From contig CANXME010002538.1 of assembly GCA_948144175.1 (NCBI GenBank), positions 959,501 through 1,023,500 on the forward strand: 64,000 bases of DNA, written 5' to 3'. A program made the position numbers and the translations under genes. Source of the stretch: Closterium sp. NIES-65. Lineage: Eukaryota > Streptophyta > Zygnematophyceae > Desmidiales > Closteriaceae. Below the pieces are notes generated by a model. The model was not told where the DNA came from, did not search any database, and was given only the letters and a program-made list of their open reading frames with translations. Shown piece by piece: positions 16,043 through 61,333 of the stretch. Numbering within the stretch: position 1 is the stretch's first letter; every line of letters starts with the position of its first letter.

Positions 16043-16058
16043 GGCGAAAAGAGGAATC

Positions 16059-26624: not shown

Positions 26625-26683
26625 GACCCGGTGTGGATGGTGATTGTCGGGCGACAGGGTCTCGTCAGTAGGTGGCCCTTCTG

Positions 26684-28020: not shown

Positions 28021-28022
28021 AG

Positions 28023-28850: not shown

Positions 28851-29025
28851 CTAAACACGGGCAGCCGCATGATTCTGCCCGAAAAGAACGCATTTGCAAA
28901 CACACTCTGGGGAAATTGGATCGCAGTTCAAATTGACCGAAACAAGAAACCTGTGAGCTTGGGCCAGCTTGGCAATCCGTGTCGCTTTAGCCTTTTTCTT
29001 CTTGGAGCCTTTGGAATATCTCCAC
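28851..29025 (-). pseudogene. LINE ORF2 C-terminal tail, cut off by Copia E2
   Basis: Removing E2 (29026-39957) and one TCCAC copy lets the LINE ORF2 frame continue from ...LLAFKILMW into RYSKGSKKKKAKATR and stay open for about 56 codons to a TAG at 28851-28853. The basic KKKKAK stretch is plausible for a nucleic-acid-binding tail. Assignment to ORF2 rests on the frame and target-duplication logic only. Confidence 0.6.
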
Positions 29026-29157
29026 TGTTAAGTTGAGAGAATGAGATGCACTATGAATCGAAACAAAGATACAAGTACCAACCCTAATTGGGTTGTACCC
29101 TCTACAGTCTACCCCACAGCAGCCTATATTACATGCATCAGCAAGTATAATCTGACA
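29026..29157 (-). repeat. E2 3' LTR
   Basis: 132 bp, TG...CA. It differs from the other E2 LTR at the fifth base (A versus G) and in GCAAGTAT versus GCAAATAT. The core contains AACCCTAATTGGGTTGTACC. Confidence 0.95.
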
Positions 29158-29379
29158 CACCCCCATAGGCAAAGTGGGGGAGAAAAAGGGGTCACAAGAC
29201 CAGTCAAGAAGAGCAAAGCAAGGCAAAACAAGCTCAGGTTGGATCTCAAGGATACCACACAAATTTCGAGCACAAGTTCAAGGCCACAAGGCCAGTTCAC
29301 ATGCAGTAGAGCATATATATATAACAAGCCTAAAGAAGTAAGAGCAGGTATATATATATATGCAACAGTACAAGCAAGG

Positions 29380-32300
29380 TCAAGAGGTGAGCAAGTGAGG
29401 CCCAGTGGGCACAAGACCAAGTAGAGTGCAAAAGCGCTGATGGTCACGAGGCGGAAGTGCCTTGGTGAACACATCAGCAGTGTTGGCCTCAGTGGCCACG
29501 AAACGCAGAAGAAGCTGACCGCGCTGCTGCAGCTCTCGAGCAAGGAAGTAGCGCAGAGCAATGTGCTTCGTCCTGTGCTCCAGTCTGTGCTCCTCACACA
29601 AGGCAATGGTTGCCTTGTTGTCGACGTACAGCACTGGAGGAGAACGAGGCCGCTCTCCAAGGTCAGTCAGCAGGTAGGTGAGCCAGCGAAGCTCCTGGGC
29701 AGCCATGGCCGTGGCGTAGATCTCAGCCTCACAGCTGGAGCTGAGAACAGAAGAAGAGCAAGTAGAGCGCCAAGAGACAGAGCCAGAGCCAAGACTGAAG
29801 GTGTAACCCTGGGACGACCGCTGAGTAGCCTGGTCGTCAGCCGAAGAAGCGTCTGAGTGCCCAGTGAGCACAGGCCGCTCTCGCCCTCCAAGCACTAGCC
29901 CCATGCCTGACGTACTGCACAAGTAGCGCAACACCCTCTTAGCTGCATCCATGTGCTCCTTCCGGTGACGGCCGGGAGCAACATAGCGTGCTAAGATGCT
30001 GAGAGGGTATGCGAGGTCAGGTCGAGTGCAGGTCATCAGATACATGAGGCAGCCCACAAGCTCTGGATACGGACCACTCGACTCTACGGACTCATCCGAA
30101 GGCAGAGCTGAGAGCGAGTGTCCCGTAGGCAGAGGAATGGACTGAGGCGAGGAGTACGTGAAGCCGAAGCGCTGAAGGACCTGCTGCACCATGTGTGACT
30201 GAGTCAGGGTGATGGTGCGCCGTGCTCTGTCCCGGGTGATCCGCAAGCCAAGATAGCTTGTCAGTTCACCCAAGTCTGTGCACGTGTGTCTCTTCTGCAG
30301 CTCGGACTTAACGTGGGCGAGTGCGGCAGTGTCCGCAGTGGCAAAGACCAAGTCCTCGACGTACACGAGGATGTAGAACGGCGGCAGCGAGGTGTTGGTG
30401 CGTAGAAACAGCGACGGGTCAGCAGTAGAAGGAGCAAACCCAAGAGCCGCAAGTGTAGTCCTCAGTGTGTCGTGCCACTCGCGCGGCGCCTGGCGGAGAC
30501 CGTAGACTGGCCGGCGGAGGCTCCACTGGGTACCAGGAGGGAACGACCCAGTGAAGCCAGGAGGGCGGCGCAGCCAGATCTCCTCGTGCAGGCGGCCCTG
30601 CAGGAAAGCAGTGCTGAAGTCAAGAGAGTGTAGCTCGTAGTCACGCTGAGCAGCGACGTGCAGCAGAACCTGAAGAGTGGTCATCTTCGGGGTCGGGGAG
30701 AAGGTCTGAAAGAAGTCAACTCCCTGTCGCTGACTGAAGCCATGAGCCACGTAGCGCGCCTTGAAGACAGGCGGAGAACCCGGCGGCCGCTTCACCCTGA
30801 AAATCCACATGCCACTGACGATGTTCGCCCCAGGAGGGGGAACCTCGTCTACGTAGGTGCCTGTGGACTTCCAGGAGGCCATCTCTGCGTCCATGGTTGA
30901 CTGCCACTGAGAGGAGTAGGGACCGGCCATCGCCTCAGCGTAAGAGCGTGGGGTCGGGATGTCTAGAGCATCCGGGTCTCCCTCAGGGGCAACAAGCATG
31001 GACACGAGATGGGGCGAAGCGGCGGCTAAGCACTGAAACTCCTCCTGCCTGTCCTCAAGGACGTCCGTGCCAAGAGCACAGTCACCCCCGACGGACGGAG
31101 GGCAGGCAGACGCAGACGCAGCAGACGCAGACTCAGTAGACGCGGACGCGGCAAACTCTGACTCAGCAACAAGACTGGCGGCGTAGTCTAGACAACACGC
31201 GGCAGCAAAGTCAACCAGCTCAGCAACCAAGGCAGACGCAGCAGCTGACTCAAAGAAAGGGTCAGTGACAGCAGTAGCAAGAAGACGCGTGCCAGTAGTA
31301 CTGGCAGCACGAAGAGAGTCCGACTCCGGGTCGGCAAGAGTAGGAAGGGAAGACGCAGGAGGAGAAGGCAAAGAGGCACGCAGAGGAGCAGTGGACGGAC
31401 GCAGAGACATCTAGTGCGTGCCAGGGACAGGAGGAGGACGCTGACGCGAACCACGACCACGAGGGCGAGCAGCACGGACAGGCGACGCAGGCCTAGACGC
31501 AGGCGCACGACGCTCAGCAAGACCTCCAGTAGGACCAGTGTAGGAAGACGGAGCAGGTAGGGGGGAGCCGGGCTGTAGCTGGAGCTGGGACTGGACAGGC
31601 TGCGGACACGCTAGGGGAGGAGACGAACTAGAGGAAGACGGGAGACCAAGCACCTGCTGAAGGAGCGGAACGAAGTACGGCCGAGGCCGCGCAGCAGCTC
31701 CAGACACAGCAGGGACAGCACCAGGACCAGTCGTAGCTCCAACACCAGCACCACCATTAGCACCAGCAGCACCCTCAGCAGGACCGCCAGCAGCAGACTC
31801 AGCGACAGCACCAGCACCCCCGGCGGCAGCACCAGCACCAGCAGCAGCCCCAACCCCAGTACCTCCAGCAGCGCCAGGAGTACCCTCAGCAGGACCGCCA
31901 GCAGCAGACTCCGCGGGAGCACCCTCAGCAGCTCCAGCTCCAGAGGCACCTCCAGGCCCGGCAGCTCCAGTACTCCCAGTACGAGCACCTCCGGGACCTG
32001 CGGCACCAGCTCCCTCAGCAGCAGTAGAAACTCCAGCACCCGCAGCACCTCCAGCAGCAGCAGCTCGCCTCCAGCGCCGGGCAAACCACTCACGCAGCTC
32101 CAGTAGAGAAAGCTGCTCCTGGCGAGAAGAAGGACTTGGAGAACCGCCAGGAACAGCACCCACAGGCTCAGCACCCCCAGACTCTGCAACTCCAGGCGCA
32201 GCACCCCCAGGCACAGCACCCCCAGGCTCAGTACCTCCAGGCTCAGCACCCCCAGGCTCAGCACCCCCAGGCTCAGCACCCCCAGTCTCAGCACCCCTAG

Positions 32301-34085
32301 GCTCAGCACCCCCAGTCTCAGCACCCCCAGGCCCCACAACCCCAGGCTCCGCACCCCCAGGCTCCGCACCCCCAGCAGCACCAGAGTCACCAGTGACCTC
32401 GACAGGCTCGACCGCGTCTATGTGAGACACACCTGAAGGGGCAGGGCCCTGAGGGGGGAGGGGGTCTACCAAGGGAGGACCTGGGACCAGGAAGAGAGGG
32501 CGGCGGGGGGAGGGACAGAGTGCGGTAGGGGAAGAGCCGGTAGAAGGGAACCGACTCGTCGAACGTGACGTCCTGGGAGGACAGAACACGACGAGAGGTG
32601 GGGTGGTAAAACTGCCACCCAGGTGCGTCAGGGGGGAAACCCAGGAAGACGCAAGGAGCAGCACGACGGGACAGCTTGTCCGCAGACAAGTCGCGGACAA
32701 ACGCCCGAGATCCCCAGACACGGAACGCCGACGCATCGCCAACCTTCCCCGTCCACAGTAGAGATGGGGAGGTCTCCGGTCTGGAGACCCTGGGCTGAAG
32801 GTTGATCTGATGCGCGGTGTACCGAACCGCAAACGGCCACAGAAAATGGGGGGCAGCCGCATGCACCATTGACGTACGGGCGACGTCCATGACAATGCCG
32901 ATGCGGCGCTCAGCAATCCCATTCTGCTGTGGAGAGTCCGGAAGCGTGAAGGTCTGGCGGATGCCTCGTGCACGACAGTAGGCTCGCAGGAGGCCGGAGG
33001 AGAACTCTCCGCCTCTGTCCGAGTGCAGACGCAAAACAGGAAAGTCCGAGCCAAAGCTCCGCCTGAGCTGGAGACGAGCTGCGCGGATCCAGTCGATCAA
33101 CACCTCAGTGACCTCACCCTTGCTGCACAAGGGGAAGACTGTGGTGTAGCGCGAGTAATCGTCAACCACCAGCAGGAAGTAGCGCTCGTGACCCTGCCCA
33201 CGGACGCGGGCTGGGCCCCACACGTCCATGTGAAGTGTCTGCAGCGGGGCCTCCGTCGGAAGGAAGGAGGAGGAGTGAGGGGTAGCCCGCAGGCGACCCT
33301 CGACACAGGGGACACAGGGAGGGCCAGGCCCCGGAGGAAGGGGAGGGAGGGACCGGGGAAGACCAGAGACAAGGAGGCAAGAGGCCATGCCCCGAAGACG
33401 AGGCAGGGAGGGGTGACCCATGCGGTGGTGCCACAGGAGGGTCTCGTGGGACAGGCTGCGACACGAGCAGGGGGCAGACTCAGGACCAGACCTGGACGCT
33501 GCAGCAAACACCTGACCCAACGCAGCTACCTGGCCAGACGCAGAAGGAGGAGACGGAACAGTGAGTGTGTACAAGCTCGACCCCGGCCCACGTGTGAACG
33601 TGGTCAAGTGCCGACCCGTGTCCGCGTCCGTGCAGTGGGTGTCCCGTCGGCGCGCAGGGGTGAACTGGTTAACCCCTACATCCTGTAGGTCAGGACCCGC
33701 CACCAAGTTCGTAGAGAACGAGGGGAGGTAGAGACCGGACAGGGAGCCAGACGGGACCGCTGGGCACGGAAGGACAGTAGAGTAGCGAGCCAGAACAGGA
33801 CCCCCAGAGGGGTCCGCCAGAGAGACTGCCACTGGCTGACTAAGCGGCGTGAGTGTGGTGCGGTCTCGAAAGAAGGAGCGAGACGCTCCTGAGTCAAGAG
33901 TGAAGGTGAGGGAGGGAGGGGCCGACGCAGTACCTGAGAGAGCAAACTCACCAGTACCTGAGGACACAGACTCACTGGCACCTAGAGCAACAACCTCACC
34001 AGCACCTGGAGCAGTGGCCTCAACAGCACCTAGAGCCGCGGTACCAATGCCCGGGTCGGGCGGGAAACACCGGTAACAGTCACCC
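29380..34085 (-). pseudogene. E2 second PR-INT-linker copy plus RT and RNase H
   Basis: Starts at GDCYRCFPPDPG (34085) in frame with the preceding RT fragment. It repeats protease, integrase and linker, then completes RVT_2 (catalytic YVED near 30350, where relatives have YVDD) and RNase H, ending at 29380. Lesions: a 1-bp indel near 32500 in the proline run, and CAG to TAG at 31411-31413 before MSLRPSTAP. The RT motif change from YVDD to YVED would be expected to harm polymerase activity. The first copy reads CAC CAG ATG at the equivalent of the TAG. Confidence 0.85.
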
Positions 34086-37000
34086 ATCTTCGGGGTCGGG
34101 GAGAAGGTTTGAAAGAAGTCAACTCCCTGTCGCTGACTGAAGCCACGAGCCACGTAGCGCGCCTTGAAGACAGGCGGAGAACCCGGCGGCCGCTTCACCC
34201 TGAAAATCCACATGCCACTGACGATGTTCGCCCCAGGAGGGGGAACCTTGTCTACGTAGGTGCCTGTGGACTTCCAGGAGGCCATCTCTGCGTCCATGGC
34301 TGACTGCCACTGAGAGGAGTAGGGACCGGCCATCGCCTCAGCGTAAGAGCGTGGGGTCGGGATGTCTAGAGCATCCGGGTCTCCCTCAGGGGCAACAAGC
34401 ATGGACACGAGATGGGGCGAAGCGGCGGCTAAGCACTGGAACTCCTCCTGCCTGTCCTCAAGGACGTCCGTGCCAAGAGCACAGTCACCCCCGACGGACG
34501 GAGGACAGGCAGACGCGGACGCAGTAGATGCAGACTCAGTAGACGCGGGCGCGGCAGACTCTGACTCAGCAACAAGACTGGCGGCGTAGTCTAGACGACA
34601 CGCGGCAGCAAAGTCAACCAGCTCAGCAACCAAGGCAGACGCAGCAGCTGACTCAAAGGAAGGGTCAGTGACAACAGTAGCAAGAAGACGCGTGACAGTA
34701 GGTCTGGCAGCACGAAGAGAGTCCGACTCCGGGTCGGCAAGAGTAGGAAGGGAAGACGCAGGAGGAGAAGGCAAAGAGGCACGCAGAGGAGCAGTGGACG
34801 GACGCAGAGACATCTGGTGCGTGCCAGGGACAGGAGGAGGACGCTGACGCGAACCACGACCACGAGGGCGAGCAGCACGGACAGGCGACGCAGGCCTAGA
34901 CGCAGGCGCACGACGCTCAGCAAGACCTCCAGTAGGACCAGTGTAGGAAGACGGAGCAGGTAGGGGGGAGCCGGGCTGTAGCTGGAGCTGGGACTGGACA
35001 GGCTGCGGACACGCTAGGGGAGGAGACGAACCAGAGGAAGACGGGAGACCAAGCACCTGCTGAAGGAGCGGAACGAAGTACGGCCGAGGCCGCGCAGCAA
35101 CTCCAGACACAGCAGGGACAGCACCAGGACCAGTCGTAGCTCCAACACCAGCACCACCAGTAGCACCAGCAGCACCCTCAGCAGGACCGCCAGCAGCAGA
35201 CTCAGCGACAGCACCAGCACCCCCGGCGGCAGCACCAGCACCAGCAGCAGCCCCAACCCCAGTACCTCCAGCAGCGCCAGGAGTACCCTCAGCAGGACCG
35301 CCAGCAGCAGACTCCGCGGGAGCACCCTCAGCAGCTCCAGCTCCAGAGGCACCTCCAGGCCCGGCAGCTCCAGTACTCCCAGTACGAGCACCTCCGGGAC
35401 CCGCGGCACCAGCTCCCTCAGCAGCAGTAGAAACTCCAGCACCCGCAGCACCTCCAGCAGCAGCAGCTCGCCTCCAGCGCCGGGCAAACCACTCACGCAG
35501 CTCAAGTGGAGAAAGCTGCTCCTGGCGAGAAGAAGGACTCGGAGAACCGCCAGGAATAGCACCCACAGGCTCAGCACCCCCAGACTCTGCAACTCCAGGC
35601 GCAGCACCCCCAGGCACAGCACCCCCAGGCTCAGTACCTCCAGGCTCAGCACCCCCAGGCTCAGCACCCCCAGTCTCAGCACCCCCAGGCTCAGCACCCC
35701 CAGTCTCAGCACCCCCAGGCCCCACACCCCCAGGCTCCGCACCCCCATGCTCCGCACCCCCAGGCTCCGCACCCCCAGCAGCACCAGAGTCACCAGTGAC
35801 CTCGACAGGCTTGACCGCGTCTACCTGAGACACACCTGAAGGGGCAGGGCCCTGAGGGGGGAGGGGGTCTACCAAGGGAGGACCTGGGACCAGGAAGAGG
35901 GGCGGCGGGGGGAGGGACGGAGTGCGGTAGGGGAAGAGGCGGTAGAAGGGGACCGACTCGTCGAACGTGACGTCCTGGGAGGACAGAACACGCCGAGAGG
36001 TGGGGTGGTAGAACTGCCACCCGGAGGTGTCAGGGGGGAAGCCCTGGAAGACACAGGGAGCAGCACGACGGGACAGCTTGTCCGCAGACAAGTCGCGGAC
36101 ACACGCCGGAGATCCCAACGGAACGCCAACGCATCGCCAACCTTCCCCGTCCACAGCAGAGCTGGGGAGGTCTCCGGTCTGGAGACCCTGGGCTGAAGGT
36201 TGATCTGATGCGCCGCGTACCGAACCGCAAACGGCCACAGAAAATGGGGGGCAGCCGCATGCACCATGGACGTACGGGCGACGTCCACGACAATGCCAAT
36301 GCGGCGCTCAGCAATCCCATTCTGCTGTGGAGAGTCCGGAAGCGTGAAGGTCTGGCGGATGCCTCGTGCACGACAGTAGGCTCGCAGGAGGCTGGAGGAG
36401 AACTCTCCGCCTCTGTCCGAGTGCAGACGCAAAACAGGAAAGTCCGAGCCAAAGCTCCGCCTGAGCTGGAGACGAGCTGCGCGGATCCAGTCGATCAACA
36501 CCTCAGTGACCTCACCCTTGCTGCGCAAGGGGAAGACTGCGGTGTAAGGCGAGTAGTCGTCAACCACCAGCAGGAAGTAGCGCTCGTGACCCTGCCCACG
36601 GACGCGGGCTGGGCCCCACACGTCCATGTGAAGTGTCTGCTGCGGGGCCTCCGTCGGAGGAAAGGAGGAGGAGTGAGGGGTAGCCCGCAGGCGACCCTCG
36701 ACACAGGGGACACAGGGAGGGCCAGGCCCCGGAGGAAGGGGAGGGAGGGACCGGGGAAGACCAGAGACAAGGAGGCGAGAGGCCATGCCCCGAAAACGAG
36801 GCAGGGAGGGGTGTCCCATGCGGTGGTGCCACAGGAGGGTCTCGTGGGACAGGAGGCGACATGAGCAGGGGGCAGACTGAGGACCAGACCTGGACGCTGC
36901 AGCAAATACCTGACCCGACGCAGCTACCTGGCCAGACGCAGAAGGAGGAGACGGAACAGTGAGTGTGTACAGGCTCGACCCCGGCCCACGTGTGAACGTG

Positions 37001-37483
37001 GTCAAGTGCCGACCCGTGTCCGCGTCCGTGCAGTGGGTGTCCCGTTGGCGCGCAGGGGTGAACTGGTCAACCCCTGCATCCTGCAGGTCAGGACCCGCCA
37101 CCAAGTTCGTAGAGAACGAGGGGAGGTAGAGACCAGACAGGGAGCCAGACGGGACCGCTGGGCACGGAAGGACAGTAGAGTAGCGAGCCAGAACAGGACC
37201 CCCAGAGGGGTCCGCAAGAGAGACTGCCACTGGCCGACTAAGCGGCGTGAGTGTGGTGCGGTCTCGAAAGAAGGAGCGAGACGCTCCTGAGTCAAGAGTG
37301 AAGGTGAGGGAGGGAGGGGCCGACGCAGTACCTGAGAGAGCAAACTCACCAGTACCTGAGGACACAGACTCACTGGCACCTAGAGCAACACCCTCACCAG
37401 CACCTGGAGCAGCGGCCTCAACAGCACCTAGAGCCGCGGTACCAATGCCCGGGTCGGGCGGGAAACACCGGTAACAGTCACCC
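30683..37483 (-). repeat. Head-to-tail 3.4-kb duplication inside E2
   Basis: The units are 30683-34085 (3403 bp) and 34086-37483 (3398 bp), almost identical apart from scattered substitutions and small indels. At the central join, AACAGTCACCC (Gag side) abuts ATCTTCGGGGTCGG (RT side). The parental ends show essentially no shared homology, so unequal homologous recombination is an unlikely origin. Confidence 0.92.
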
Positions 37484-38875
37484 TCCTCACTAATAGTCAC
37501 AGCATACATGGCACGAAGAATAGCATCAAAGTCAAGATCAAAGATAGCTACTCCTGCCCTAAACAGCTGGTCCCAGCGAGGGATCCCAGTGGCGTCAGGA
37601 AACTGGCGGCGCCAAGCGTCAGTCAGGCGGCCAAAGCAGCGCTGGGTGGAGTGTGGACCACCACACGGCTCACCCGTACGGTCGCCAGTGCGCAGGACGT
37701 AGGTGCACGGACCAGTACCCCCACCCCGCTGACGCGCAGTGTACCACTCACGGAGCTGCTGCGGGGAGAGGGTCTCCCGACCACGCTGCTGCTGCTGCTG
37801 CTGACGCTGACCACCACCGGAGCCACTCCTCTGCGACGAGCCACGACCTCCGCTGCCGCCTCCTCCGCCTCCGCCGCCACCACCTCCGCTACCACCGCCA
37901 CTCCCTCCGTCGTCACCGCCACCGCCGCCCCCGCCTCCACTCCCACCACCACCGCCGCCGCCGCCCCCGCCTCCACTGCCGCCGCTAACACCTCCACTCC
38001 CGCCACCACTACCGCTACCACCCCCACCTCCTCCGCTGCCTCCACCGCCGCCTCCACCACCCCCGCCGCCTCCACCACTGCCCCTGCCCCCCTTGCCCTT
38101 GCCAGAGCGACGTCTCCCACTAGGGGCAGACGCCGCTCCGACCGACTCAAAGCCAACGAGGTCGGCCGTAGCAGCAGAGGCGACAGAGGGCAGGAGGGGG
38201 GAGGGGGAACACCCCTCAAAGATGGGGGTGCGCGGGTCACCACGAGAGGCCCCTACAGCGAGAATGCTCTTCTCAGCCGCTAGGAGGGACTTCTCGAGGA
38301 GGTCAACAGTGAGAGTGGTGGGGCAAACTGAGAGGAAGTCGTCCCTGACTCCGTGAAGGGAGTCAGGGAGGCGGGTGACAATGTAGTAGAGGGTGATGTA
38401 CATGGGGGGGGGGGGTCTTGGCGCAGAACTCAGCAGGAAGTGCAGCGCAGTAGCGAGCGTCACTAGTGCGCAGGTGGGTAATGAGGTCGGCGACTGTGGC
38501 AAAGGAAGCAAGGTCGAGAAAGAGGTACGGTAGCATGAGGCGGCTCAGTGCAGCTGTGGCAGGGGAGGAGTAGCGTGCAATAACGGCGTCGTACAAGGTC
38601 TGAGCACTCTTGTACGACCCAAAGTGTGCACGCTCAGAGGGAGGGAGGTGGCGACGCACAGCAAGACGTGCAGCAGCATCGCGGGTGGCCCACTGTGAGC
38701 GAACAGTGGCATCCTCAGTAGCAGCAGGGGCGGGAGAGGCACCAGAAGTGAGATCAAAGAGAGAGAGGCCGTCGGCTCTGTCGCACTGTAGGAAAAGCAG
38801 TAGGTCGTCCACCCACACGTCAAAGTCAATGGCTCTGCCCTCAGCGTCAAAGGTGAGGACACTGGGGGTAGCCAT
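34086..38875 (-). pseudogene. E2 Gag-PR-INT-linker, first copy
   Basis: Gag starts at ATG 38875 (MATPSVLTFDAEGRAIDFDV) with a UBN2-type Copia gag domain. A run of 12 G at 38404-38415, against 10 in E3, shifts the frame at ...PPP-MYITLYY. A glycine-rich stretch (about 37860-38095) and a modified zinc knuckle (C-X12-C-X3-H-X4-C, ending CGGPHSTQRC) follow. The protease has TLDSGASRSFF, and integrase has HMDVWGPARVRG, HSDRGGEF and QNGIAERRIG. Near 36110-36122 a 4-bp deletion relative to the second copy shifts the frame again. The linker carries GGAEP pentapeptide repeats. The segment ends at FSPTPKM (34086), where it joins in frame to a second Gag end. Confidence 0.85.
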
Positions 38876-39796
38876 GACAGCAGTAGGGTGAGGGTAGTGC
38901 TCAGTGCTCACCAGACAGGGTAGTGCAGACGGCCAGGGCGGCTCGGGCGGCTCGGCGGCTCGGCTGCTGGGCGGCTCGGGCGGCACGGCTGCAGGGCGGC
39001 TCGGCTGCTGGGGCGGCTCGGCTGCTGGGGCGGCTCGGCTGCTGGGGCGGCTCCGGTGCTGGGGCGGCTCAACTGCTGGGGCGGCGCGGCTGCTGGGGCG
39101 GCGGGGCCAGTAGATGCAGTAGCGGGGCCAGGAGATGCAGCAGCGGGTCCGGGAGATGCAGTGGCGGGGCCGGGAGACGCAGCGGCGGGGCCGTCAGGTG
39201 CAGTAGCGGGGCCGGCAGATGCAGCAGCGGGGCCGTCAGGGGGACGGCGGGGCCTGCAGGTGAGGCGACGGGGCCGGCAGGTGCAGCTGAGGGGCCGGCA
39301 GGTGGGACGGCGGGGCCGTCAGGGGAGGTGGCGGGGCCGTCAGGTGCAGCTGCGGGGCCGTCTGAAGGAGCGGCGGGGCCGGCAGAGGGGACGGCGGGGC
39401 CGTAGGTAGCAGCGGCGGGGCCGGCAGAGGGGACGGCGGGGCAGTCAAGCGCAGCGGCGGGGCCGGTAGAGGGGACGGCGGGGCCGTCAGGAGGGACGGC
39501 GGGGCCGTCGAAGGTAAGCGCGGGGCCGTCAGAGGCGGCGCCGGCGTCGCGAGGGTAAGAGGGGGCGGCGCGGGCGGCGCAAGGGCGACGCGGCGCGGCC
39601 GGGAGGTAAGCGCGACGCGGCCGGGAGGTCAGCGTGACGCGACCCGGGTCGCGCGCGCTAAAAAAAAATGTCGCGCGCGCGACTCGCGGGGGGCCACAAG
39701 GGCAGCTCGAAAAGCCCTAGGGGGAGCGCGCCTCGGGGAGAGTAGGGCGCGCTCCGGGCAGGTGAAAGTTCGTTGTGGTGGGCCCTAAAAAAAAAC
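38876..39796 (-). repeat. E2 5' leader, GC-rich minisatellite
   Basis: The leader is made of GCGGCGGGGCCGTCAGGTGC-type and GCTGGGGCGGCTCG-type repeats in + orientation. Near the PBS lies a block with an A run, GCGCGCGACTCGC and GGGGAGAGTAGGGCGC that is conserved with E3. Long apparent frames here are repeat artefacts. Confidence 0.8.
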
Positions 39797-39825
39797 GGTC
39801 CTTAGGAAGGACCCGCTCTATACAA
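39797..39825 (-). other. E2 primer-binding site and adjacent hairpin
   Basis: On the - strand TTGTATAGAGCGGGTCC directly follows the 5' LTR and resembles the complement of the initiator tRNA-Met 3' end with mismatches. GGTCCTTAGGAAGGACC (39797-39813) can fold into a short hairpin overlapping the PBS; the same hairpin sits beside the E3 PBS. Confidence 0.7.
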
Positions 39826-39957
39826 TGTTGAGTTGAGAGAATGAGATGCACTATGAATCGAAACAAAGATACAAGTACCAACCCTAATTGGGTTGTACCC
39901 TCTACAGTCTACCCCACAGCAGCCTATATTACATGCATCAGCAAATATAATCTGACA
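39826..39957 (-). repeat. E2 5' LTR
   Basis: 132 bp, starting at the TSD TCCAC (39958-39962) and ending just before the PBS at 39809-39825. Confidence 0.95.
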
Positions 39958-44088: not shown

Positions 44089-44167
44089 GAGAGTAAGCTA
44101 TGCAGCACATGCACTAGCTGGGAGACCACCCTGGCGCAGACAGAAGCCTGGCCATAAGAGGTCACAC

Positions 44168-45026: not shown

Positions 45027-45156
45027 TGTCAAACATTATATGTTTCTATGTTTCTAGGCTGTAGTGAGTTACACCATAGGGGGTACACCAGATTAGGGTT
45101 TCCTATTTGTACTGTTGTTCCTGTTAGTCACCACATTCCTGTTCCTCATTCTGACA
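45027..45156 (+). repeat. E1 5' LTR
   Basis: 130 bp from TGTCAAACATT to CATTCTGACA. It contains GATTAGGGTTTCCTATTTGT, which includes a telo-box in reverse orientation. Confidence 0.95.
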
Positions 45157-45175
45157 TGGTATTACGAGCCTAGGT
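45157..45175 (+). other. E1 primer-binding site
   Basis: TGGTATTACGAGCCTAGG directly follows the 5' LTR. It resembles the initiator-Met PBS (TGGTATCAGAGC) with one extra base and substitutions, so the priming tRNA is uncertain. Confidence 0.6.
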
Positions 45176-52086: not shown

Positions 52087-52322
52087 CTTGGCGTGTATTG
52101 TGATCACTATATATATATATACCTGCATGTTTGCCCTTGCTAGGTTGTGATCATTGTACCTCTTGCTCTATTATAAACCTGCATGTGAACTGGTCTTGTG
52201 ACCGTTTGCTTGTGCTCGAAATTTGTGTGGAATCCTCGAGATCCACCCTGAGCTTGTTTGCCTTGCTTTGCCTTGACTGGTCTTGTGACCCCTAGGTCTC
52301 CTCCACTTTGCCTATGGGGGTG

Positions 52323-52452
52323 TGTTAAACATTATATGTTTCTATGTTTCTAGGTTGTAGTGGGTTACACCATAGGGGGTACACCAGATTAGGGTTTCCT
52401 ATTTGTACTGTTGTTCCTGTTAGTCACACTATTCCTGTTTCTCATTCTGACA
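52323..52452 (+). repeat. E1 3' LTR
   Basis: 130 bp from TGTTAAACATT to CATTCTGACA. Seven substitutions separate it from the 5' LTR (about 95% identity by eye). It is immediately preceded by the polypurine tract. Confidence 0.95.
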
Positions 52453-53111
52453 GAGAGTAGCCCAGGGGCACGTTGCGAAGGACCAGGTGCGTCTCGCCCC
52501 TGGCCCGAGCGAGCGTGAACTCCTCGTTCGGATCAGTGAAGACCTTGACTTCCATCGCACGATTGTTAGACAGACGCACAGTAACCGGAAACAGATTGCG
52601 GAAAATTCTGGCATCGTTGGCAGAGGGCCAGGAGAAAGAATGCCAGGAATAGGTGCTGCGAGGGAGCCGCAGGGCCTCACCAGTTGCGGACTCAAACGAG
52701 GGGATGACGCCGTTGAAGGCCTGACTGTTGATGAGAGAGGAGATGCGCGTGAGAACAGCTGCACGAACCTCTTCCGCCGAGGCTTCGGGGAAAATGATGT
52801 CGACCAACAACTGCGTGTTGCGTGTCACCGCCTGCAGGATCGCCCCGACCGATGTACGGTGGCGGCGAAGATTCCGGTAGAGAGCGTTAGGAGCAAGGTC
52901 CGTGGCCAGTGCAGTGGCAACAGGCGCAGGTTCAGGTTCCGGCGGCGCAGGACGAGAGTTTGGAGCAGGCGCCTGTCGAGGCGTGGGCTGAGCAGGCGCG
53001 CGAGCAGGCGTGGGCTGAGCAGGCGCGCGAGCAGGCGTGGGGCCCGTGGCGGCAGAGCTGCCGGAAGAGCTTGCGCGAGGGATCAGATGAGGCGCCGAGT
53101 GAGACGCCGCG
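52453..53111 (-). pseudogene. LINE ORF1, middle part
   Basis: Read from 53111, the frame ASHSAPHLIPRASSSG runs on through a Pro/Ala/Arg-rich repeat (PTPARAPAQ, twice) to VTRNTQLLVDIIFPEASAEE and ...LVLRNVPLGYS at 52453. The last part looks like a folded nucleic-acid-binding domain. Joining to 45021 at the GAGAG site preserves the frame. It also joins in frame to 60786 on its N-terminal side. Confidence 0.75.
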
Positions 53112-53243
53112 TGTGAAATTATGAAACAGGAATGAAATGACTAAGTCTGAAAACAGTACAAATAGCAAACCCTAAGTGGGTTGTACCCCCTATGGGATAC
53201 CCCACTGTAGCCTACACAAACAGGTAAGCTATATGTTCTGACA
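53112..53243 (-). repeat. E3 3' LTR
   Basis: 132 bp with TG...CA ends, containing AAACCCTAAGTGGGTTGTAC (telo-box). Confidence 0.96.
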
Positions 53244-53447
53244 CACCCCCATAGGCAAAGTGGGGGAGAACAAGGGGTCACAAGACCAGTCAAGCAAAGC
53301 AAAGCAAGCTCGGGGTGGATCACAAAGTCACCACACAGTCCGAGCACAAGAGCAAGGCCAAAGGCCAGTTCACATGCAAGAGTACAGACATATATATAAA
53401 GCAAGACAAGCAAGAGCAGGTATATATATGTCACAGTACAAGAAAAG

Positions 53448-56400
53448 TCAAGAAGAGAGCAAGTGAGGCAAGACAGGCACAAGACCCAGCTGGGTACAAA
53501 AGCGCTGATGGTCACAAGGCGCAAGTGCCTTGGTGAACACATCGGCAGTGTTGGCCTCAGAGGCCACGTACGCAAGTCGCAACTGACCACGCTGCTGCAG
53601 CTCACGAGCAAGGAAGTAGCGGAGAGCAATGTGCTTCGTTCTGTGCTCCAAGCGCTGCTCTCGACACAAGGCCAGCATGGCCTTGTTGTCTACGTACAGC
53701 ACTGGAGGAGAACGAGGCCGCTCTCCAAAGTCAGTCAGCAGGTAGGTGAGCCAGCGAAGCTCCTGTGCAGCCATGGCCCCGGCGTAGATCTCAGCCTCAC
53801 AACTGGAGCCGAGAACCGAAGACGAGCGAGTAGACCGCCACGAGACAGAGCCGGAACCAAGGCTGAAGGTGTAACCCTGCGACGACCGCTGCGTAGCCTG
53901 GTCGTCAGCCCAAGAAGCGTCCGCGTGGCCTGTAAGGACCACTGGACTCCGCCCTCCAAGCACTAGCCCCATGCCCGACGTACTGCACAGGTAGCGCAAT
54001 ACCCTCTTCGCTGCAGCCATGTGCTCTGGTCGGTGTCTACCAGGAGCAACATAGCGTGCAAGAATGCTCAGAGGGTATGCAAGGTCAGGTCGTGTGCAGG
54101 TCATCAGGTACATGAGGCAGCCAACAAGCTCCGCATACGGACCACTCGACTCTACGGACTCATCCGAAGGCAGAGCTGAGAGTGAGTGGCGAGTAGGCAG
54201 AGGAGTGGCCTGAGGCGAGGAGTACGTGAAGCCGAAGCGCTGAAGGACCTGCTGCACCATGTGTGACTGAGTCAAGGTGATGGTGCGGCGTGCTCTGTCC
54301 CGAGTGATCTGCAAGCCAAGGTAGCTGCGCAGTTCACCCAGGTCTGTGCACGTGTGTCTCTTCAGCAGCTCGGACTTCACGTAGGCGAGTCCAGCAGTGT
54401 CCGCTGTGGCAAAGACCAAGTCGTCGACGTACACGAGGATGTAGAACGGCGGCAGAGAAGTGTCGGTGCGCAGAAACAGCGACGGGTCAGCAATAGAAGG
54501 AGCAAACCCAAGAGCCGCAAGCGTAGTCCTCAGTGTGTCGTGCCACTCACGCGGTGCCTGGCGGAGACCGTAGACTGGCCGTCGGAGGCTCCACTGGGTG
54601 CCAGGAGGGAAAGTCCCAGTGAAGCCAGGCGGACGGCGCAGCCAGATCTCCTCGTGCAGGCTACCCTGCAGGAACGCAGTGCTGAAGTCGAGAGAGTGAA
54701 GCTCGTAGTCGCGCTGAGCGGCTATGTGCAGCAGCACCCGAAGAGTAGTCATCTTCGGGGTGGGGGAGAAGGTCTGAAAGTAGTCAACTCCCTGCCGCTG
54801 ACTGAAGCCACGAGCAACGTACCGCGCCTTGAAGACAGGTGGAGAGCCCGGCGGCCGCTTCACCCGGAAGATCCACATGCCACTGACGATGTTCGCCCCA
54901 GGAGGGGGAACCTCGTCAACGTAGGTGCCTGTGGACTTCCAGGAAGCCATCTCTGCATCCATAGCTGCCTGCCACTGAGAGGAGTAGGGACCCTCTACGG
55001 CCTCCACGTAAGAGCGCGGAGTCGGGATGTCTAGTGCATCCGGGTCTCCCTCAGGGGCAAGCAGTACAGACGCGAGATGAGGTGAAGCAGCCGCTAGACA
55101 CTGTAACTCCTCCTGCCTGTCCTCTAGGACGTCCGTGCCAAGAGCACACTCACCCCCGACGGACGGAGGACAGACAGACGCAGACTCAGCAACAAGACTA
55201 GCAGCGTAGTCTAGACGACAGCGAGCAGCAAAGTCGACGAGCTCAGCGACAAGAGCAGACGCAGCAGTGGACTCAAAAGAGGGGTCAGTGACAACAGTAG
55301 CAAGTAGACGTGTGACAGTAGGACTGGCAGCACGAAGAGAGTCCGACTCAGGGTCGGCAAGCGCAGGAAGAGAGGACTGAGGAGGAGAAGGCAAAGGGGC
55401 ACGCAGAGGAGCCGTGGACGGACGCAGAGACATCCGGTGCGTGCCAGGGACAGGAGGAGGACGCTGACGCGAACTGCGACCACTAGTGCGAGCAGTACGA
55501 ACAGGCGACGTGGGACGAGACGCAGGCTCACGACGCTCAGCAAGACCTCCAGTAGGACCAGTGTAAGGAGAGGGAGCAGGCAGTGGAGAGGAAGGCTCTA
55601 GCAGGGACTGCGACTGGACAGGCTGTGGACACTCTACTGGAGGAGAAAGACCAAGAACCTGCTGCAGGAGCGGAACGAAGTACGGCCGAGGCCGCGCGGC
55701 AGCTCCAGACTCAGCAGGGACAGCACCAGTACCCTCAGCGACAGCACCGGCGCCACCCACACCTCCAGCGGCAGGACCTCCAGCAGCACCAGCAGTAGAA
55801 CCACCGCCAGGACCGACAGCAGTAGTCTCAGCACCAACACCCTCAGCAGCTCCAGCTCCAGGAGGACCCGCAGGCCCAGCAGCTCCGGGACTGGCAGTAC
55901 CAGCACCCTCGACGGGCGAAGAAGCACCAACTCCAGCTCCAGCAGCACCCCCAGACTCAGCAGCACGCCTCCAGCGGCGAGCGAACCACTCGCGCAGCTC
56001 CAGTGGAGAGAGGGGCTCCCGGCGAGGCGCAACAGGAGAAACCCCAGGCTCAGTAGCTCCAGACGCAGCACCCCCAGGCTCAGCAGATCCAGACGCAGCG
56101 CCCCCAGGCTCAGCAGCTCCCAGCTCAGCACCCCCAGACCCAGCACCTCCAGGCACAGCACCCCCCGGCTCCGCACCCCCCGACTCAGCACCCCCAGGCT
56201 CCGCACTCTCCGCAGCAGCACCCCTAGGCCCAGCACCCTCAGGCTCAGCTCCCTCGCGCACAGCACCCCCAGAGGCAGCACCCCCAGGCTCAGCACCCGC
56301 AGCAGCACCAGAGTCACCAGTAACCTCAACAGGGTCAGCGGCGTCTACCTGGGACACACGTGAGGGAGCAGGAACCTGAGGGGGGAGGGGGTCTACCGGG

Positions 56401-59400
56401 GGGGGAAGCGGTACCAGGAAGTCCGGGGGAGGGGGGGGGGAGGGAGTACGGTAGGGGAAGAGACGGTAGAAGGGGACGGACTCGTCGAACGTGACGTCCT
56501 GGGAGGACAGAACACGACGAGAGGAGGGGTGGTAAAACTGCCACCCAGGGGCGTCAGTGGGGAAGCCAAGGAAGACACAGGGAGCAGCACGAGGAGACAG
56601 CTTGTCCGCAGACAAGTCGCGGACAAACGCCCGAGATCCCCAGACACGGAACGCAGACGCATCGCCAACCTTCCCTGTCCACAGCAAGGCTGGGGACATA
56701 GCAGGCCTAGAGACCCGGGGGTGAAGGTTGAGCTGATGCGCCGCGTACCTCACAGCGAACGGCCACAGAAAATGGGGAGCAGCCGCATGCATCATGGACG
56801 TACGAGCGACATCCATGACCATGCCAATGCGGCGCTCAGCAATCCCATTTTGCTGTGGTGAGTCCGGAAGCGTGAAGGTCTGGCGGATCCCTCGTGCACG
56901 AAAGTAGTCTCGTAGAAGGCGAGAGGAGAACTCTCCACCTCTGTCCGAGTGCAGACGTAGAACAGGAAAGTCCGAGCCGAAGCTCTGCCTGAGCTGGAGA
57001 CGAGCCTCGCGGATCCAGTCGATCAGCACCTCAGTGACCGCACCCTTGCTGCGCAAGGGGAGGACTGTGGTGTAACGCGAGTAGTCATCAACCACCAACA
57101 GGAAGTAGCGCTCGTGACCCTGCCCACGGACGGGGGCTGGGCCCCACACATCCATGTGAAGCGTCTGCAGGGGAGCCTCTGTCGGGGGGAAGTGGGAGGA
57201 GTGAGGAGCAGCCCGGAGGCGACCCTCGACACAGGGGACACAGGAAGGTCCTGGCCCGGAGGGGAGAGGAGGGAGAGTCTGGGGAAGACCAGAGACAAGG
57301 ACACGGGAAGCCATGCTCCGAAGACGGGGCAGGGAGGGGTGGCCAAGACGGTGGTGCCACAGGAGAGTCTCGTGAGACAGGAGACGGCAAGAACAGGGGG
57401 CAGACTCAGGACCTGACCGGGACGCTGCAGCAAGCTCCTGACCTGACGCAGCTACCTGACCGGACACAGGGACAGGAGGAGGCGAGGTGGTCAGAGTGTA
57501 GAGGCTCGACCCCGGCCGACGCGAGAACGTGGCCAGGTGCCGGCCTGTGCGTGCGTCCGTGCAGTGGGTCACCCGCTGACTCGCAGGAGTGAACTGGTGG
57601 ACCCCCGCATCCTGTAGGGCTGCACCACTCACCAAGTTCGTCGAGAACGAGGGAAGGTACAGACCAGACAGGGCGCCCGAAGGGGCAGCCGGACACGGGA
57701 GGACAGTGGAGAAGTGAGACAGGACAGGACCCCCAGAGGGGTCCGCCAGGGAGACCGCAACCGGCCGGCCAAGAGGCGTGAGGGTAGTGCGGTCTCGAAA
57801 GAAGGAGCGAGAAGCTCCGGAGTCAAGTGTGAAAGTGAGGGAGGACGAGGGCGACTCAGTACCTGAAAGCGCAGTCTCACCAGTACCTGAGAGCGCAGAC
57901 GCACTGGCACCTAGAGCAGCAGCCTCACAAGCACCTAGCGCAGCAGTACCAATGCCCGGATCGGGCTGGAAACACCGGTAACCCTCATTCTCATCACTAA
58001 TAGTCACAGCATACATAGCAGCAAGGATAGCATCGAAATCAAGATCAAAGATCGCAACACCAGCCCTAAGGAGCTCATCCCAACGAGGGATCTCACTGGC
58101 CCCGGGGAACTGCTGACGCCAAGCGTCCGTCAGGCGGCCAAAGCAGCGCGAGGTGGCGTGGGCACCCCCACACTGCTCACCCGCGCGGTCGCCGGAACGA
58201 AGGACGTAGGTGCAGGGACCAGTACCCCCACCCCTCTGGCGCCCAGCGTACCACTCACGAAGCTACTGGGGCGGAGGGATGTCACGCGAGCGCTGCTGCT
58301 GCTGCCGCTGCGAGCGCTGGCCACCACCACCGCCACTACGCTGCTGAGTGCCACCCCGGCCAGATCCGCTCCCTCCACCACCTCCTGCTCCTCCGCCGCC
58401 GCCTCCACCGCCTCCACCGCCTCCACCGCCTCCACCTCCTCCGCCCCCACCTCCGCCGCTGCCACCTCCACCACCGCCGCCACCACCACCACCTTCTCCG
58501 CCGCTGCTGCCACCACCACCACCACCACCACCACCACTACTCCCGCCGCCACCCCCACTCCCACTGCCGCCACCTCCGCCACCTCCACCGCTCCCTCCAG
58601 CTCCACTCGCGCCCCTGCTTCCCTTGTTCCTGCTGGAGCGACGTCTCCCACTAGGGGCAGACGCCGCGCCGACCGACTCAAGACCAAGCAGGTCGGCAGC
58701 GGCAGCAGAGGCAACAGAGGGCAGCAAGGGTGAAGGAGAGCACCCCTCAAAGATGGGGGTGCGAGGGTCACCACGAGAAGCCCCTACAGCAACTATGCTC
58801 TTCTCAGCTGAGAGGAGGGCCTTCTCGAGGAGGTCAACGGTGAGAGTGGTGGGACAGACAGCTAGGAACTGGTCCCTGACTACACGAAGGGAGTCAGGGA
58901 GGCGCGCGACTACGTAGTAGAGAGTGATGTACATGGGGGGGGGGTTCTTAGCGCAGAACTCAGCAGGAAGGGCGGCGCGGTAGCGAGTGTCACTAGTGCG
59001 GAGGTGCGTAATGAGGTCAGCGACAGTGGGAAAGGCAGAGAGGTCAGGAAAGAGGTAGGGAAGCATGAGACGAGTCAGTGCAGCAGTGGCAGGGGAGGAG
59101 TAGCGCGCAACTACAGCGTCGTACAAGGTCTGAGCACTCTTGTACTGACTAAAGTGCGCTCGCTCGGAGGTAGGGAGGTGGCGACGCACAGCAAGACGTG
59201 CAGCAGCATCGCGGGTGGCCCACTGAGAGCGGACAGTGGGATCAGCATCAGCAGCAGGAGCAGGAGAGGCGCCAGAGGTGAGGTCAAAGAGAGAAAGGCC
59301 GTCAGCTCTGTCGCACTGTAAGAACAGCTGCAGGTCATCTAGCCAGACCTCAAAATCAATGGCGCGACCCTCCGCGTCAAACGCTAGGACACTAGGGGTA

Positions 59401-59405
59401 GCCAT
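53448..59405 (-). pseudogene. E3 Gag-Pol polyprotein with one in-frame TAG
   Basis: The 1986-codon frame starts at ATG 59405 (MATPSVLAFDAEGRAIDFEV). UBN2-type gag domain about 1-170; glycine-rich stretch about 240-370; TAG at codon 381 (58263-58265), where relatives have CAG in QQLREWY; zinc-knuckle-like segment near 400-415. Protease DSGA at about 528; pre-integrase HETLLWHHRLGHPS near 700; integrase DDE residues in HMDVWGPAPV, HSDRGGEF and QNGIAERR (about 760-865). A linker with GGAEP and GGAAS repeats follows, then RVT_2 with YVDD near 54430 and RNase H to the stop at 53448. All domains look complete. Gag-Pol readthrough of the TAG cannot be excluded, but the CAG of the sister copies argues for a point mutation. 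Confidence 0.92.
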
Positions 59406-60624
59406 GGCTACGACAGTAAAGCAGTGCAAGCAGTAGGGGAAGAGCACGCAGTGACAGTGGGACTGTGCTCACCAGGCAGGGCAGGTCGTGCAACTCGACA
59501 GAAAAGGCAGCTCGGCGACCGGGCGGCTCGGGTGCACAGCGGCTCGGCTCCCGGGCGGCTCGGCGACAGGGCGGCTCGGGTGGAGGGCGGCTCGGCTCCC
59601 GGGCGGCTCGGAGGCAGGGCGGCTCGGGTGCAGGGCGGCTCGGCTCCCGGGCGGCTCGGCGGCTGAAGGGCGGCTCGGCTGCTGCAGGGCGGTTCGGCTG
59701 CTGTGTCGTGGCGGGGCCGGGACAGGAGACGGCGGGGCCGTCAGGGTGCAGCGGCGGGGCCGGGACAGGAGACGGCGGGGCCGTCAGGGTGCAGCGGCGG
59801 GGCCGGGACAGAGGACGGCGGGGCCGTCAGGGTGCAGCAGCGGGGCCGGGACAGAGGACGGCAGGGCCGTCAAGTGGGACGACGGGGCCGTCAAAAGGGG
59901 GGACGGCGGGGCCGTCAGGTTGCAGCGGCGGGGCCGGCAATGTGCAGCGGCGGGGCCGTAAGAGGTGCAGCGGCGGGGCCGGGAAAGGGACGGGCGGAGC
60001 CGTCAGGTGCAGCGGCGGGGCCGTCTGAGGTGCAGCGGCGGGGCCGGGAAAGGGACGGGCGGAGCCGTCAGGTGCAGCGGCGGGGCCGTCTGAGGTGCAG
60101 CGGCGGGGCCGGGACAGGGACGGGCGGAGCCGTCAGGGTGCAGCGGCGGGGCCGAGACGGGGACGGGCGGGGCCGGTACAGGAAGCGGCGGGGCCGTCAA
60201 GGTGCAGTGACGGGGCCGTCTGAGGTGCAACGGCGGGGCCGGGACAGGGACGGGCGGGGCCGTTGAGGTGTAGCGGCGGGGCCGTCTGAGGTGTAGCAGC
60301 GGGGCCGGCCGGGCCGGGCCGTCAAAAATCGAACGGCGGGGCCGTCAAACGCAGGGCCCGCGGCCGCGACGAAGCGGCCGCGTGGCCGATTCGAGGGCGG
60401 CGGGGCGCAGCCGGGCCGAAAGTGGCGGCGCGGCGCGGCCGTAGAGCCCGCGCGACGTGGGCCCGAGCCGCGCGCGCTAAAAAAAATTTGCGCGCGCGAC
60501 TCGCAGGGGCCCACACGGGCAGCGCGAGCCGCACTAAGGGTAGGGGAGGGGGGGGAGCGCGACTCGGGGAGAGTAGGGCGCTCCGGGCAGAGCGAAATCT
60601 GTGGGTGGGCCCAAAAAAAAATTC
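59406..60624 (-). repeat. E3 5' leader, GC-rich minisatellite
   Basis: It contains GGCTCGGCTCCCGGGCGGCT-type repeats (59510-59690) and GCAGCGGCGGGGCCGTCAGG-type repeats (59710-60300). Toward the PBS is a non-repeated block with AAAAAA, GCGCGCGACTCGCAGGGGCC and GGGGAGAGTAGGGCG shared with E2. No independent gene is called. Confidence 0.8.
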
Positions 60625-60653
60625 GGTCCTTAGGAGGGACCTGCTCTATACCA
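60625..60653 (-). other. E3 primer-binding site and adjacent hairpin
   Basis: On the - strand TGGTATAGAGCAGGTCC abuts the 5' LTR and matches the complement of the initiator tRNA-Met 3' end with one base missing after TGGTAT. GGTCCTTAGGAGGGACC (60625-60641) forms a small hairpin overlapping it, conserved in E2. Confidence 0.8.
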
Positions 60654-60785
60654 TGTGAAATTATGAAACAGGAATGAAATGACTAAGTCTGAAAACAGTA
60701 CAAATAGCAAACCCTAAGTGGGTTGTACCCCCTATGGGATACCCCACTGTAGCCTACACAAACAGGTAAGCTATATGTTCTGACA
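60654..60785 (-). repeat. E3 5' LTR
   Basis: Identical to 53112-53243 over all 132 bases as far as I can compare by eye. Confidence 0.96.
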
Positions 60786-61035
60786 CCGCGGCAACGCCAG
60801 AGGTACCAGCAGCCGAAGGATGCCCCTCACTGCACAGCTTTTTAGTGGCGGGTTCACCCGTCGAGGTCGACTGAGCACCGGCAGGAACGGAAGAAGCAGC
60901 TCCATCGTGGAGATCGAGAAGGACTCCGTTAGGAAGATCCTCGAGGAACTCGTCTCCGAGTTCACCAAGCATTTCGTCTCCCGCAGGGATCTACCCTTCC
61001 GTCATGGCGTGATCAGGATTGTGCTCAGTAGCCAT
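60786..61035 (-). pseudogene. LINE ORF1, N-terminal part
   Basis: ATG at 61035 opens MATEHNPDHAMTEG and meets TAG at 60991-60993. The same frame resumes with a Met at 60972 (MLGELGDEFLEDLPNG) and runs to the E3 insertion. After removing E3 and E1 with one target duplication each, the frame from 60972 to 44168 totals 1695 bases (565 codons) without a stop. A TATAAATC on the - strand at 61073-61080 lies about 40 bases upstream of ATG 61035. Confidence 0.7.
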
Positions 61036-61333
61036 GGTTGCGAGGGGTAAGTATAAGCTCGCCAGAGGCCTTGATTTATACCCAACTGGAAATGGGAGGA
61101 GACGCCTCTCCAAACAGGAAGCGAGATATCGTGGAAAGGCAGCGAGCCAGATCGCGCAGCGAGAGAGGAAAGGCGGTTCGAGAAGAACTTGGTGCCTTGG
61201 CGATGGCCATAGCACCCAGAGTAGGCTGACTGGACGCCAGATCGACAGTCTGAGTCGGTAATGGGCGCATGTGCGCGAAACTTAGGAGCCAGGTAAACAT
61301 GGGGAGCCTTACGTTGGCAATGCCATAGCTGAG

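What the first reader, a model, noticed from the sequence alone, without database searches (positions are those of the whole stretch)
28851..61035. One LINE split into four pieces by three independent Copia insertions, with frame restored at every junction
E1, E2 and E3 each have perfect 5-bp target duplications and all three sit in the same - strand LINE (ORF1 twice, ORF2 once). Removing each element plus one duplication copy rejoins ORF1 as 565 stop-free codons from 60972 to 44168, and extends ORF2 by about 56 codons. Three hits in about 6 kb of LINE suggests either a preferred target or a heterochromatic sink.
Basis: partly seen in the sequence, partly recalled or inferred. Interest (0 to 1): 0.75.

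Follow-up and report, generated by a model that had tools for sequence, protein, structure and literature searches.

The report
Copia-riddled LINE carrying an intron
Three copies of a very common jumping gene did land in one older jumping gene, which their sheer abundance can explain, but the older gene turns out to carry an intron in every copy examined, something that elements copied through RNA are expected to lose.

Summary
Observation confirmed: E1, E2 and E3 have TG..CA LTRs and perfect 5-bp TSDs, and other LINE copies run across the three sites in 10, 9 and 6 of 10 contigs. The interpretation partly holds. The Copia family has 38,502 motif copies in 874 Mb (reversed control 0). Eight other LINE loci hold 4 insertions against 2.1-3.1 expected, at scattered sites, so no target preference is needed; this copy (3 against 0.3-0.5) prompted the claim. 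The "565 stop-free codons" read through a 225-bp GT-AG intron (44670-44446) and start after an in-frame TAG. The intron is the surprise. All 12 places that match the family's ORF1 exon-2 head keep the acceptor CAG; the spliced junction has 0 matches. Seven of ten aligned copies need its removal to keep frame. Across the family and relatives down to about 40% amino-acid identity, 51 exon pairs have no gap under 60 bases. An L1-type LINE clade therefore appears to move as unspliced RNA while needing splicing for full ORF1. No transcript was seen.

The parts
60786..61820 (-). LINE piece 1: 5' region (ORF0-like leader) and start of ORF1; conserved ORF1 ATG at 61035, in-frame TAG 60993-60991
   Evidence: Homology to C1894, C1727, C1821, C2013 and C1988 from about ATGAAGCTCTCC on; positions
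52453..53106 (-). LINE piece 2: ORF1 middle (without the duplicate TSD copy 53107-53111)
39958..45021 (-). LINE piece 3: ORF1 end, ORF2 endonuclease and reverse transcriptase, most of the ORF2 C-terminus
   Evidence: Pfam Exo_endo_phos 1.4e-11, RVT_1 9.5e-23
28414..29020 (-). LINE piece 4: ORF2 end and 3' UTR with an ACCTTTAAA-type tail
44446..44670 (-). Spliceosomal-type phase-1 intron in ORF1 (GTACTG...GCGCAG, 225 bp), open and in frame by chance in this copy
   Evidence: relatives
44168..44445 (-). ORF1 exon 2: RLIGQQPAPAAFKKDPG... with a zinc-finger-like C-x2-C...H...H (my reading; no Pfam match at cut-off in C1894)
29026..39957 (-). E1, Ty1/Copia element with an internal 3.4-kb tandem duplication; TSD TCCAC
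45027..52452 (+). E2, Ty1/Copia element; TSD GAGAG
53112..60785 (-). E3, Ty1/Copia element, identical LTRs; TSD CCGCG
29021..29025 (.). TSD copy of E1 (other copy 39958-39962)
45022..45026 (.). TSD copy of E2 (other copy 52453-52457)
53107..53111 (.). TSD copy of E3 (other copy 60786-60790)

Best explanation
One L1-type LINE was hit three separate times by members of a single, extremely abundant Ty1/Copia family. Integrase makes a 5-bp staggered cut (established for LTR elements), so each hit duplicates 5 bp of LINE, and leaving out element plus one duplicate returns the original frame (shown by copies that lack the insert). The number of hits follows from the family's density; no targeting is needed (shown for eight other loci, inferred for this one). 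The LINE belongs to a clade whose ORF1 holds a GT-AG intron at a fixed, phase-1 position. New copies keep the intron (shown), so the template used for retrotransposition is unspliced (inferred), while a spliced messenger is needed to join the N-terminal part of ORF1 to its C-terminal zinc-finger-like part (inferred from frames; no RNA seen). This works like the two-RNA strategy of the intron-bearing plant LTR elements Ogre and EVADE.
For: Insertions: LTRs, TSDs and empty sites. Background: 38,502 motif copies at up to 2 mismatches, reversed control 0; the four Copia elements of the window each carry the motif; Poisson comparison. Same family in other LINE copies: C1821/C1812 TSD CCTCG, C1727/C2181 TSD CTTCT, C2013 TSD CTGGC and an LTR start in the C1672 3' UTR (94% identical to the E3 LTR over 88 bp). 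Intron: 10 of 10 aligned copies (eight loci) have G|GT (9) or G|GC (1) and CAG|G borders and 70-76% T+C; intron identity is 31-55% against 73-92% in exons over the 21 pairs of 7 copies; leaving it out keeps the exon-2 frame in 10 of 10, reading through keeps it in 3 of 10, and without a stop only in the window. Genome-wide: 12 exon-2 heads, the same 12 with CAG, 0 spliced junctions at up to 1 mismatch. Clade-wide: 51 exon pairs, none with a gap under 60 bp; sequence of three distant loci fits (donor and acceptor in C1819 and C2333, a TAG acceptor in C1155), whereas the RT query runs unbroken over at least 470 residues in 37 of 94 rows (my count). Mobility with the intron: C1894 and C1727 share 219 of 223 intron bases but not their flanks; C1894 has a 17-bp TSD.
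Against: No transcript was seen, so splicing is inferred. In the window itself the intron is open and in frame. C2013 has a stop in exon 2 and C615 a frameshift soon after the junction, so some copies are decayed. Three hits in this one copy remain improbable for a single LINE (P = 0.004-0.013) and all nine loci give P = 0.012-0.075 unless the choice of the window is allowed for. Some of the 51 exon pairs are evident allelic or duplicated loci, two exon-2 rows serve twice, and nine pairs have gaps over 2 kb that may hold other inserts or be wrong pairings; 150 of 223 candidates were scored and 150 of 153 matches listed.
Confidence: 0.84

Rival explanations
1. The Copia integrase prefers this LINE (sequence or chromatin targeting).
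For: 3 hits in 7.36 kb here (P = 0.004-0.013) and 7 in 55.1 kb over nine loci (P = 0.012-0.075).
Against: The excess lies in the copy that prompted the test; the other eight loci hold 4 against 2.1-3.1 expected. Insert positions and TSDs differ from site to site and both orientations occur. No family insert was seen in the fetched LINE parts of C1894, C615, C1988 and the partial C850.
Confidence: 0.1
2. The locus is a heterochromatic or low-recombination sink where insertions of all kinds persist.
For: The 64-kb window also holds a Gypsy element about 110 bp beyond the LINE 3' end and a fourth Copia piece at its left end.
Against: Four family motifs in 64 kb (0.06/kb) is close to the genome mean of 0.044/kb, so the window is not strikingly rich in this family; an open frame with leucine-rich repeats lies in it. 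Chromatin could not be examined.
Confidence: 0.25
3. The variable ORF1 segment is a fast-evolving coding linker, not an intron.
For: It is open and in frame in the window copy.
Against: It breaks the frame in 7 of 10 copies and holds a stop in 2 more, an allele-like pair; borders are GT/GC-AG; the gap at the same place is about 0.2 to 1.6 kb in relatives.
Confidence: 0.07
4. Intron-bearing copies arose by DNA-level duplication rather than through RNA, so no unspliced template is needed.
For: Two contig pairs (C1727/C2181, C1821/C1812) do share flanks and look allelic or segmental.
Against: C1894 and C1727 share the LINE but not the flanks; C1894 has a 17-bp and C1988 a 15-bp (simple-sequence) duplication next to the 3' tail, as target-primed reverse transcription gives.
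Confidence: 0.08

Closest known systems
L1 clade LINEs (human LINE-1 ORF2)
   Same: ORF1 upstream; ORF2 with APE-type endonuclease and RT; best solved relatives are human LINE-1 ORF2 chains (E about 1e-59); long target duplications in two copies.
   Different: A conserved intron in ORF1; a tail of ACCTTTAAA-like units rather than poly(A). In human L1, spliced copies are described as retrotransposition-defective (PMC5860796, abstract and passages seen).
Plant LTR elements Ogre and EVADE
   Same: Functional introns said to make subgenomic RNAs by alternative splicing (PMC12786077, passages seen).
   Different: LTR elements, copied by another mechanism.
Penelope-like elements
   Same: Retrotransposition apparently allows intron retention; [quoted passage not shown]
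   Different: GIY-YIG endonuclease (PMC3846280 passage); this LINE has an APE-type endonuclease and an L1-like RT.
Nested plant LTR retrotransposons
   Same: LTR elements inserting into older elements (PMC6911290, abstract and passages seen).
   Different: That survey concerns LTR elements nested in LTR elements; here the host element is a LINE.

Membership tests
Ty1/Copia (E1-E3) | Integrase before RVT_2 reverse transcriptase in one polyprotein | tested here: met
   E3: gag_pre-integrs (288-347), rve (363-469), RVT_2 (1122-1355); E2: RVT_2, its integrase part only by similarity to the E3 relatives; E1 by DNA identity to E3
Ty1/Copia (E1-E3) | TG..CA LTRs and 5-bp TSD | tested here: met
Ty1/Copia (E1-E3) | tRNA primer-binding site | not tested
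   Not examined
L1-clade LINE | APE-type endonuclease plus RVT_1 RT in ORF2 | tested here: met
L1-clade LINE | Nearest solved relative is L1 ORF2 | tested here: met
   (query from C1894): 9hdo E 1.4e-59; R2 proteins weaker (7e-19)
L1-clade LINE | RT phylogeny inside the L1 clade | not tested
   No reference set of LINE clades was on hand
L1-clade LINE | Variable-length target-site duplication | tested here: inconclusive
   17 bp in C1894 (0 of 200 shuffles as long); 15 bp of simple sequence in C1988 (no shuffle control); none in the window copy or C1821; 8 bp in C1727 is within chance (28 of 200)
L1-clade LINE | Known ORF1 domain | tested here: inconclusive
   No Pfam match at cut-off for the ORF1 parts
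Spliceosomal intron | GT-AG (or GC-AG) borders, frame kept only by removal | tested here: met
   borders 10 of 10; frame kept only by removal in 7 of 10, stop in 2, open in the window
Spliceosomal intron | Spliced transcript | not testable with these tools
   No RNA data

The most novel reading that the evidence does not exclude
A whole L1-type LINE clade in a photosynthetic eukaryote has kept a phase-1 spliceosomal intron at one ORF1 position, inherited through retrotransposition. The element would use two RNAs: unspliced RNA as genome, spliced RNA for complete ORF1 protein, with splicing acting as a switch between translation and copying.
Probability: 0.6. Interest if true: 0.75.

Novelty: new variant of a known kind. 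Interest (0 to 1): 0.55.

Why it matters
The nesting itself is ordinary and is explained by the abundance of one Copia family. The intron is not ordinary: loss of introns is the classic sign of copying through RNA, and in the papers seen here introns kept through transposition are described for Penelope-like elements and a few LTR elements. A LINE clade that keeps one would mean that LINE RNA is split into spliced and unspliced pools, and makes testable how a LINE protects its genome RNA from splicing.

Tried and rejected
Target preference was tested by counting insertions in other LINE copies against the family's genome density; not needed. A first version of that count had 3 insertions in an estimated 49 kb for the eight other loci; after the LTR start in C1672 was seen it became 4 in 47.7 kb. 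Inserts that hold more than one element were counted once: C2013 (two family elements) and C1727/C2181 (a second Copia nested). C1812's 17-kb stack was not counted, because its Copia lies in another inserted sequence shared in part with C1821. Gypsy 23827-28303 (TSD CAACC) as a fourth hit in the LINE: rejected, it lies about 110 bp beyond the LINE 3' end.

Two further candidate introns in the 5' leader (GTAAGC..TAACGA..CAG and GTGAGT..CTAACT..CAG) were left open: their lengths are nearly constant in the six copies (43 or 46, and 55 in five of six) and in C1894 they stay open as coding, which speaks for coding; codon-position counts show weak periodicity in the candidate exons and none in the candidate introns, which speaks for introns, on small numbers. 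C1155 and C1862 looked as if they might be contiguous (spliced) copies; the C1155 sequence shows a pyrimidine tract and a TAG acceptor, so the match had run into the intron; C1862 was not read. The 70,632 RVT_2 first-look candidates are unscored and were not used as a count.

Rows and loci left out: one search scored 150 of 223 candidates and listed 150 of 153 matches; all 150 went into (71 exon-1 rows, 79 exon-2 rows; 51 pairs on one contig and strand within 20 kb). Of the 12 ORF1 heads the insertion count used the window and 9 others plus the partial C850; C532, C2261 and the ORF2-only hits were not mapped, nor the more distant relatives. C1727/C2181 and C1821/C1812 were merged as allele-like. 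Part of the C1672 5' region reads N.
Full report
What was claimed. A minus-strand LINE is split into four pieces by three Copia elements, each with a 5-bp duplication, and the frame is restored at every junction; a preferred target or a heterochromatic sink was suggested.

Check. The three elements begin and end in TG..CA, have LTRs of about 130-135 bp and exact duplications TCCAC, GAGAG and CCGCG. LTR mismatches are 2 of 132 (E1), 7 of 130 (E2) and 0 of 132 (E3), so the insertions are probably of different ages, E3 the youngest (inference from short LTRs). E3 has gag-pre-integrase, integrase and RVT_2 domains in Copia order and E2 has RVT_2; E1 matches E3 at DNA level and holds a 3.4-kb internal tandem duplication, 97% identical. 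The ORF1 pieces add up to 1695 nt; their open phases fit across the junctions, and ORF2 runs on past E1 (and arithmetic by hand). Other copies in the 874-Mb genome were fetched. Joined 300-base flanks align across the E1 site in 10 of 10 contigs, E2 in 9 of 10 and E3 in 6 of 10; at E1 and E2 there is no gap within 20 nt, at E3 one of six (C1894) has 2 gap letters, and an earlier run with other gap costs placed 1-2 there in four copies.

The LINE. From comparison with C1894, whose flanks are unrelated to those of its near-identical relative C1727, the element runs from about 61820 to about 28414, 7.36 kb without inserts. ORF2 has an APE-type endonuclease and RVT_1, and the best solved relatives of the C1894 frame are human LINE-1 ORF2 chains. 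In the window ORF2 has three in-frame stops and one 1-nt frameshift that the four relatives aligned lack, and ORF1 has a TAG as the 15th codon from its conserved ATG. This copy is a decayed element.

Is the LINE a preferred target? Other copies also carry the same Copia family: C1821/C1812 (TSD CCTCG), C1727/C2181 (CTTCT), C2013 (CTGGC) and, in its 3' UTR, C1672 (one end seen); no family insert was seen in the LINE parts of C1894, C615, C1988 and the partial C850. A 30-base pol motif found in each of the four Copia elements of the window occurs 38,502 times in the genome with up to 2 mismatches, and 0 times reversed: 0.044 per kb, or 0.066 per kb of the remainder if each copy is 7.5 kb long. 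The eight other loci (47.7 kb) should hold 2.1-3.1 insertions and hold 4 (P = 0.16-0.38). The window LINE should hold 0.3-0.5 and holds 3 (P = 0.004-0.013); all nine loci together, 7 against 2.4-3.6 (P = 0.012-0.075). Because the window was chosen for its three hits, the eight other loci are the fairer test. Sites are scattered along the element and both orientations occur. Ordinary abundance is sufficient; a mild enrichment is not excluded.

The intron. Aligning ten copies over the ORF1 end showed two well-conserved blocks separated by 208-226 bases that are nearly unalignable. The ten include two allele-like pairs, so eight loci. The segment starts G|GTAC in nine copies and G|GCAA in C1988, ends CAG|G in all ten, and is 70-76% pyrimidine. 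In the 21 pairs among seven copies compared, exons are 73-92% identical and the segment 31-55%. Leaving it out keeps the exon-2 frame in 10 of 10 copies; reading through keeps it in 3 of 10 and is stop-free only in the window. C2013 has a stop further on in exon 2 and C615 a frameshift, both outside the segment. Genome-wide, the family's exon-2 head occurs 12 times at up to 2 mismatches, and the same 12 places match with CAG in front; the spliced junction has 0 matches at up to 1 mismatch.

How far does it go? A 169-residue query made of both exons, with the junction after residue 78, gave 153 matches from 150 scored of 223 candidates. Of the 150 rows listed, 51 of 71 exon-1 rows end at residues 77-83 and 43 of 79 exon-2 rows start at residues 73-79. 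In 51 cases an exon-1 and an exon-2 row lie on one contig and strand within 20 kb; none has a gap under 60 bases: 25 lie between 150 and 300, 17 between 300 and 2000, 9 above 2000. Several pairs are evident duplicates of one locus and two exon-2 rows serve twice, so fewer than 51 are independent. The only row spanning the junction by 30 residues on both sides is the window's own read-through. As a control, the RT query runs unbroken over at least 470 residues in 37 of 94 rows (my count; 90 of 2743 candidates scored). Sequence at C1819 and C2333 shows G|GTAC donors and CAG acceptors in the same phase, with introns of 238 bases and about 1.6 kb (in C1819 I chose the acceptor that keeps the frame; it joins as Ala instead of Gly); C1155 shows a TAG acceptor after a pyrimidine tract.

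Does the intron move? C1894 and C1727 share 219 of 223 intron bases but not their flanks, and C1894 is bounded by a 17-base duplication next to its 3' tail (0 of 200 shuffles as long); C1988 has a 15-base one of simple sequence, without a shuffle control. No duplication was found for the window copy or C1821, and the 8 bases at C1727 are within chance. New copies therefore carried the intron, most simply through an unspliced template. An antisense template, as PMC3846280 proposes for Penelope elements (abstract and passages seen), is not excluded.

Known context. Passages of PMC12786077 describe functional introns in the LTR elements Ogre and EVADE; PMC5860796 (abstract and passages) describes splice sites in human L1 RNA and its spliced copies as retrotransposition-defective; PMC3846280 calls Penelope elements exceptional in dispersing introns; PMC6911290 (abstract and passages) treats nesting of LTR elements. 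In full-text searches for introns in LINEs I saw no listed title or abstract start that describes a conserved intron in a LINE ORF1. The listings were capped (12 of 118, 12 of 134, 8 of 48), and most subscription papers are not in that library, so this does not show that it is unpublished.

Host.

Verdict. The finding is correct as an observation and ordinary as a phenomenon. Its main by-product, a positionally conserved intron in an L1-type LINE clade, is a new variant of a known kind whose splicing remains to be shown in RNA.

Noticed in passing
window 44446-44670; clade-wide: Phase-1 GT-AG intron in LINE ORF1, kept at all 12 places that match the family's exon-2 head and at about the same residue in distant relatives.
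   Followed up: yes
window 61529-61820: The LINE starts with ATGAAGCTCTCC (MKLSASLLL, signal-peptide-like by eye) and has two candidate short introns with CTAACT/TAACGA branch-like motifs; in C1894 this frame is open into ORF1.
   Followed up: partly
window 30682-37483: E1 holds a 3.4-kb tandem duplication of its internal region (97.15% identical), making it 10.9 kb.
   Followed up: no
window 23827-28303: Minus-strand Gypsy element with TSD CAACC, next to the LINE 3' end; its left LTR seems to lack about 45 bp, and pol looks cut short there.
   Followed up: partly
5' ends of C1894 (L043), C1727 (L035) and C1988 (L046): 55 to 156 bases of copy-specific sequence lie between the target duplication and the shared LINE start (the duplication of C1727 is uncertain).
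   Followed up: partly
window 1-4167: Further piece of the same Copia family (94.5% identical to E3 over 1963 bases).
   Followed up: no
window 13649-16099: 816-residue open frame with leucine-rich repeats.
   Followed up: no
C2013 about 25972-26158 (sense-oriented join of L036-L038): A LINE 3' end lies in inverted orientation just after the C2013 LINE.
   Followed up: no
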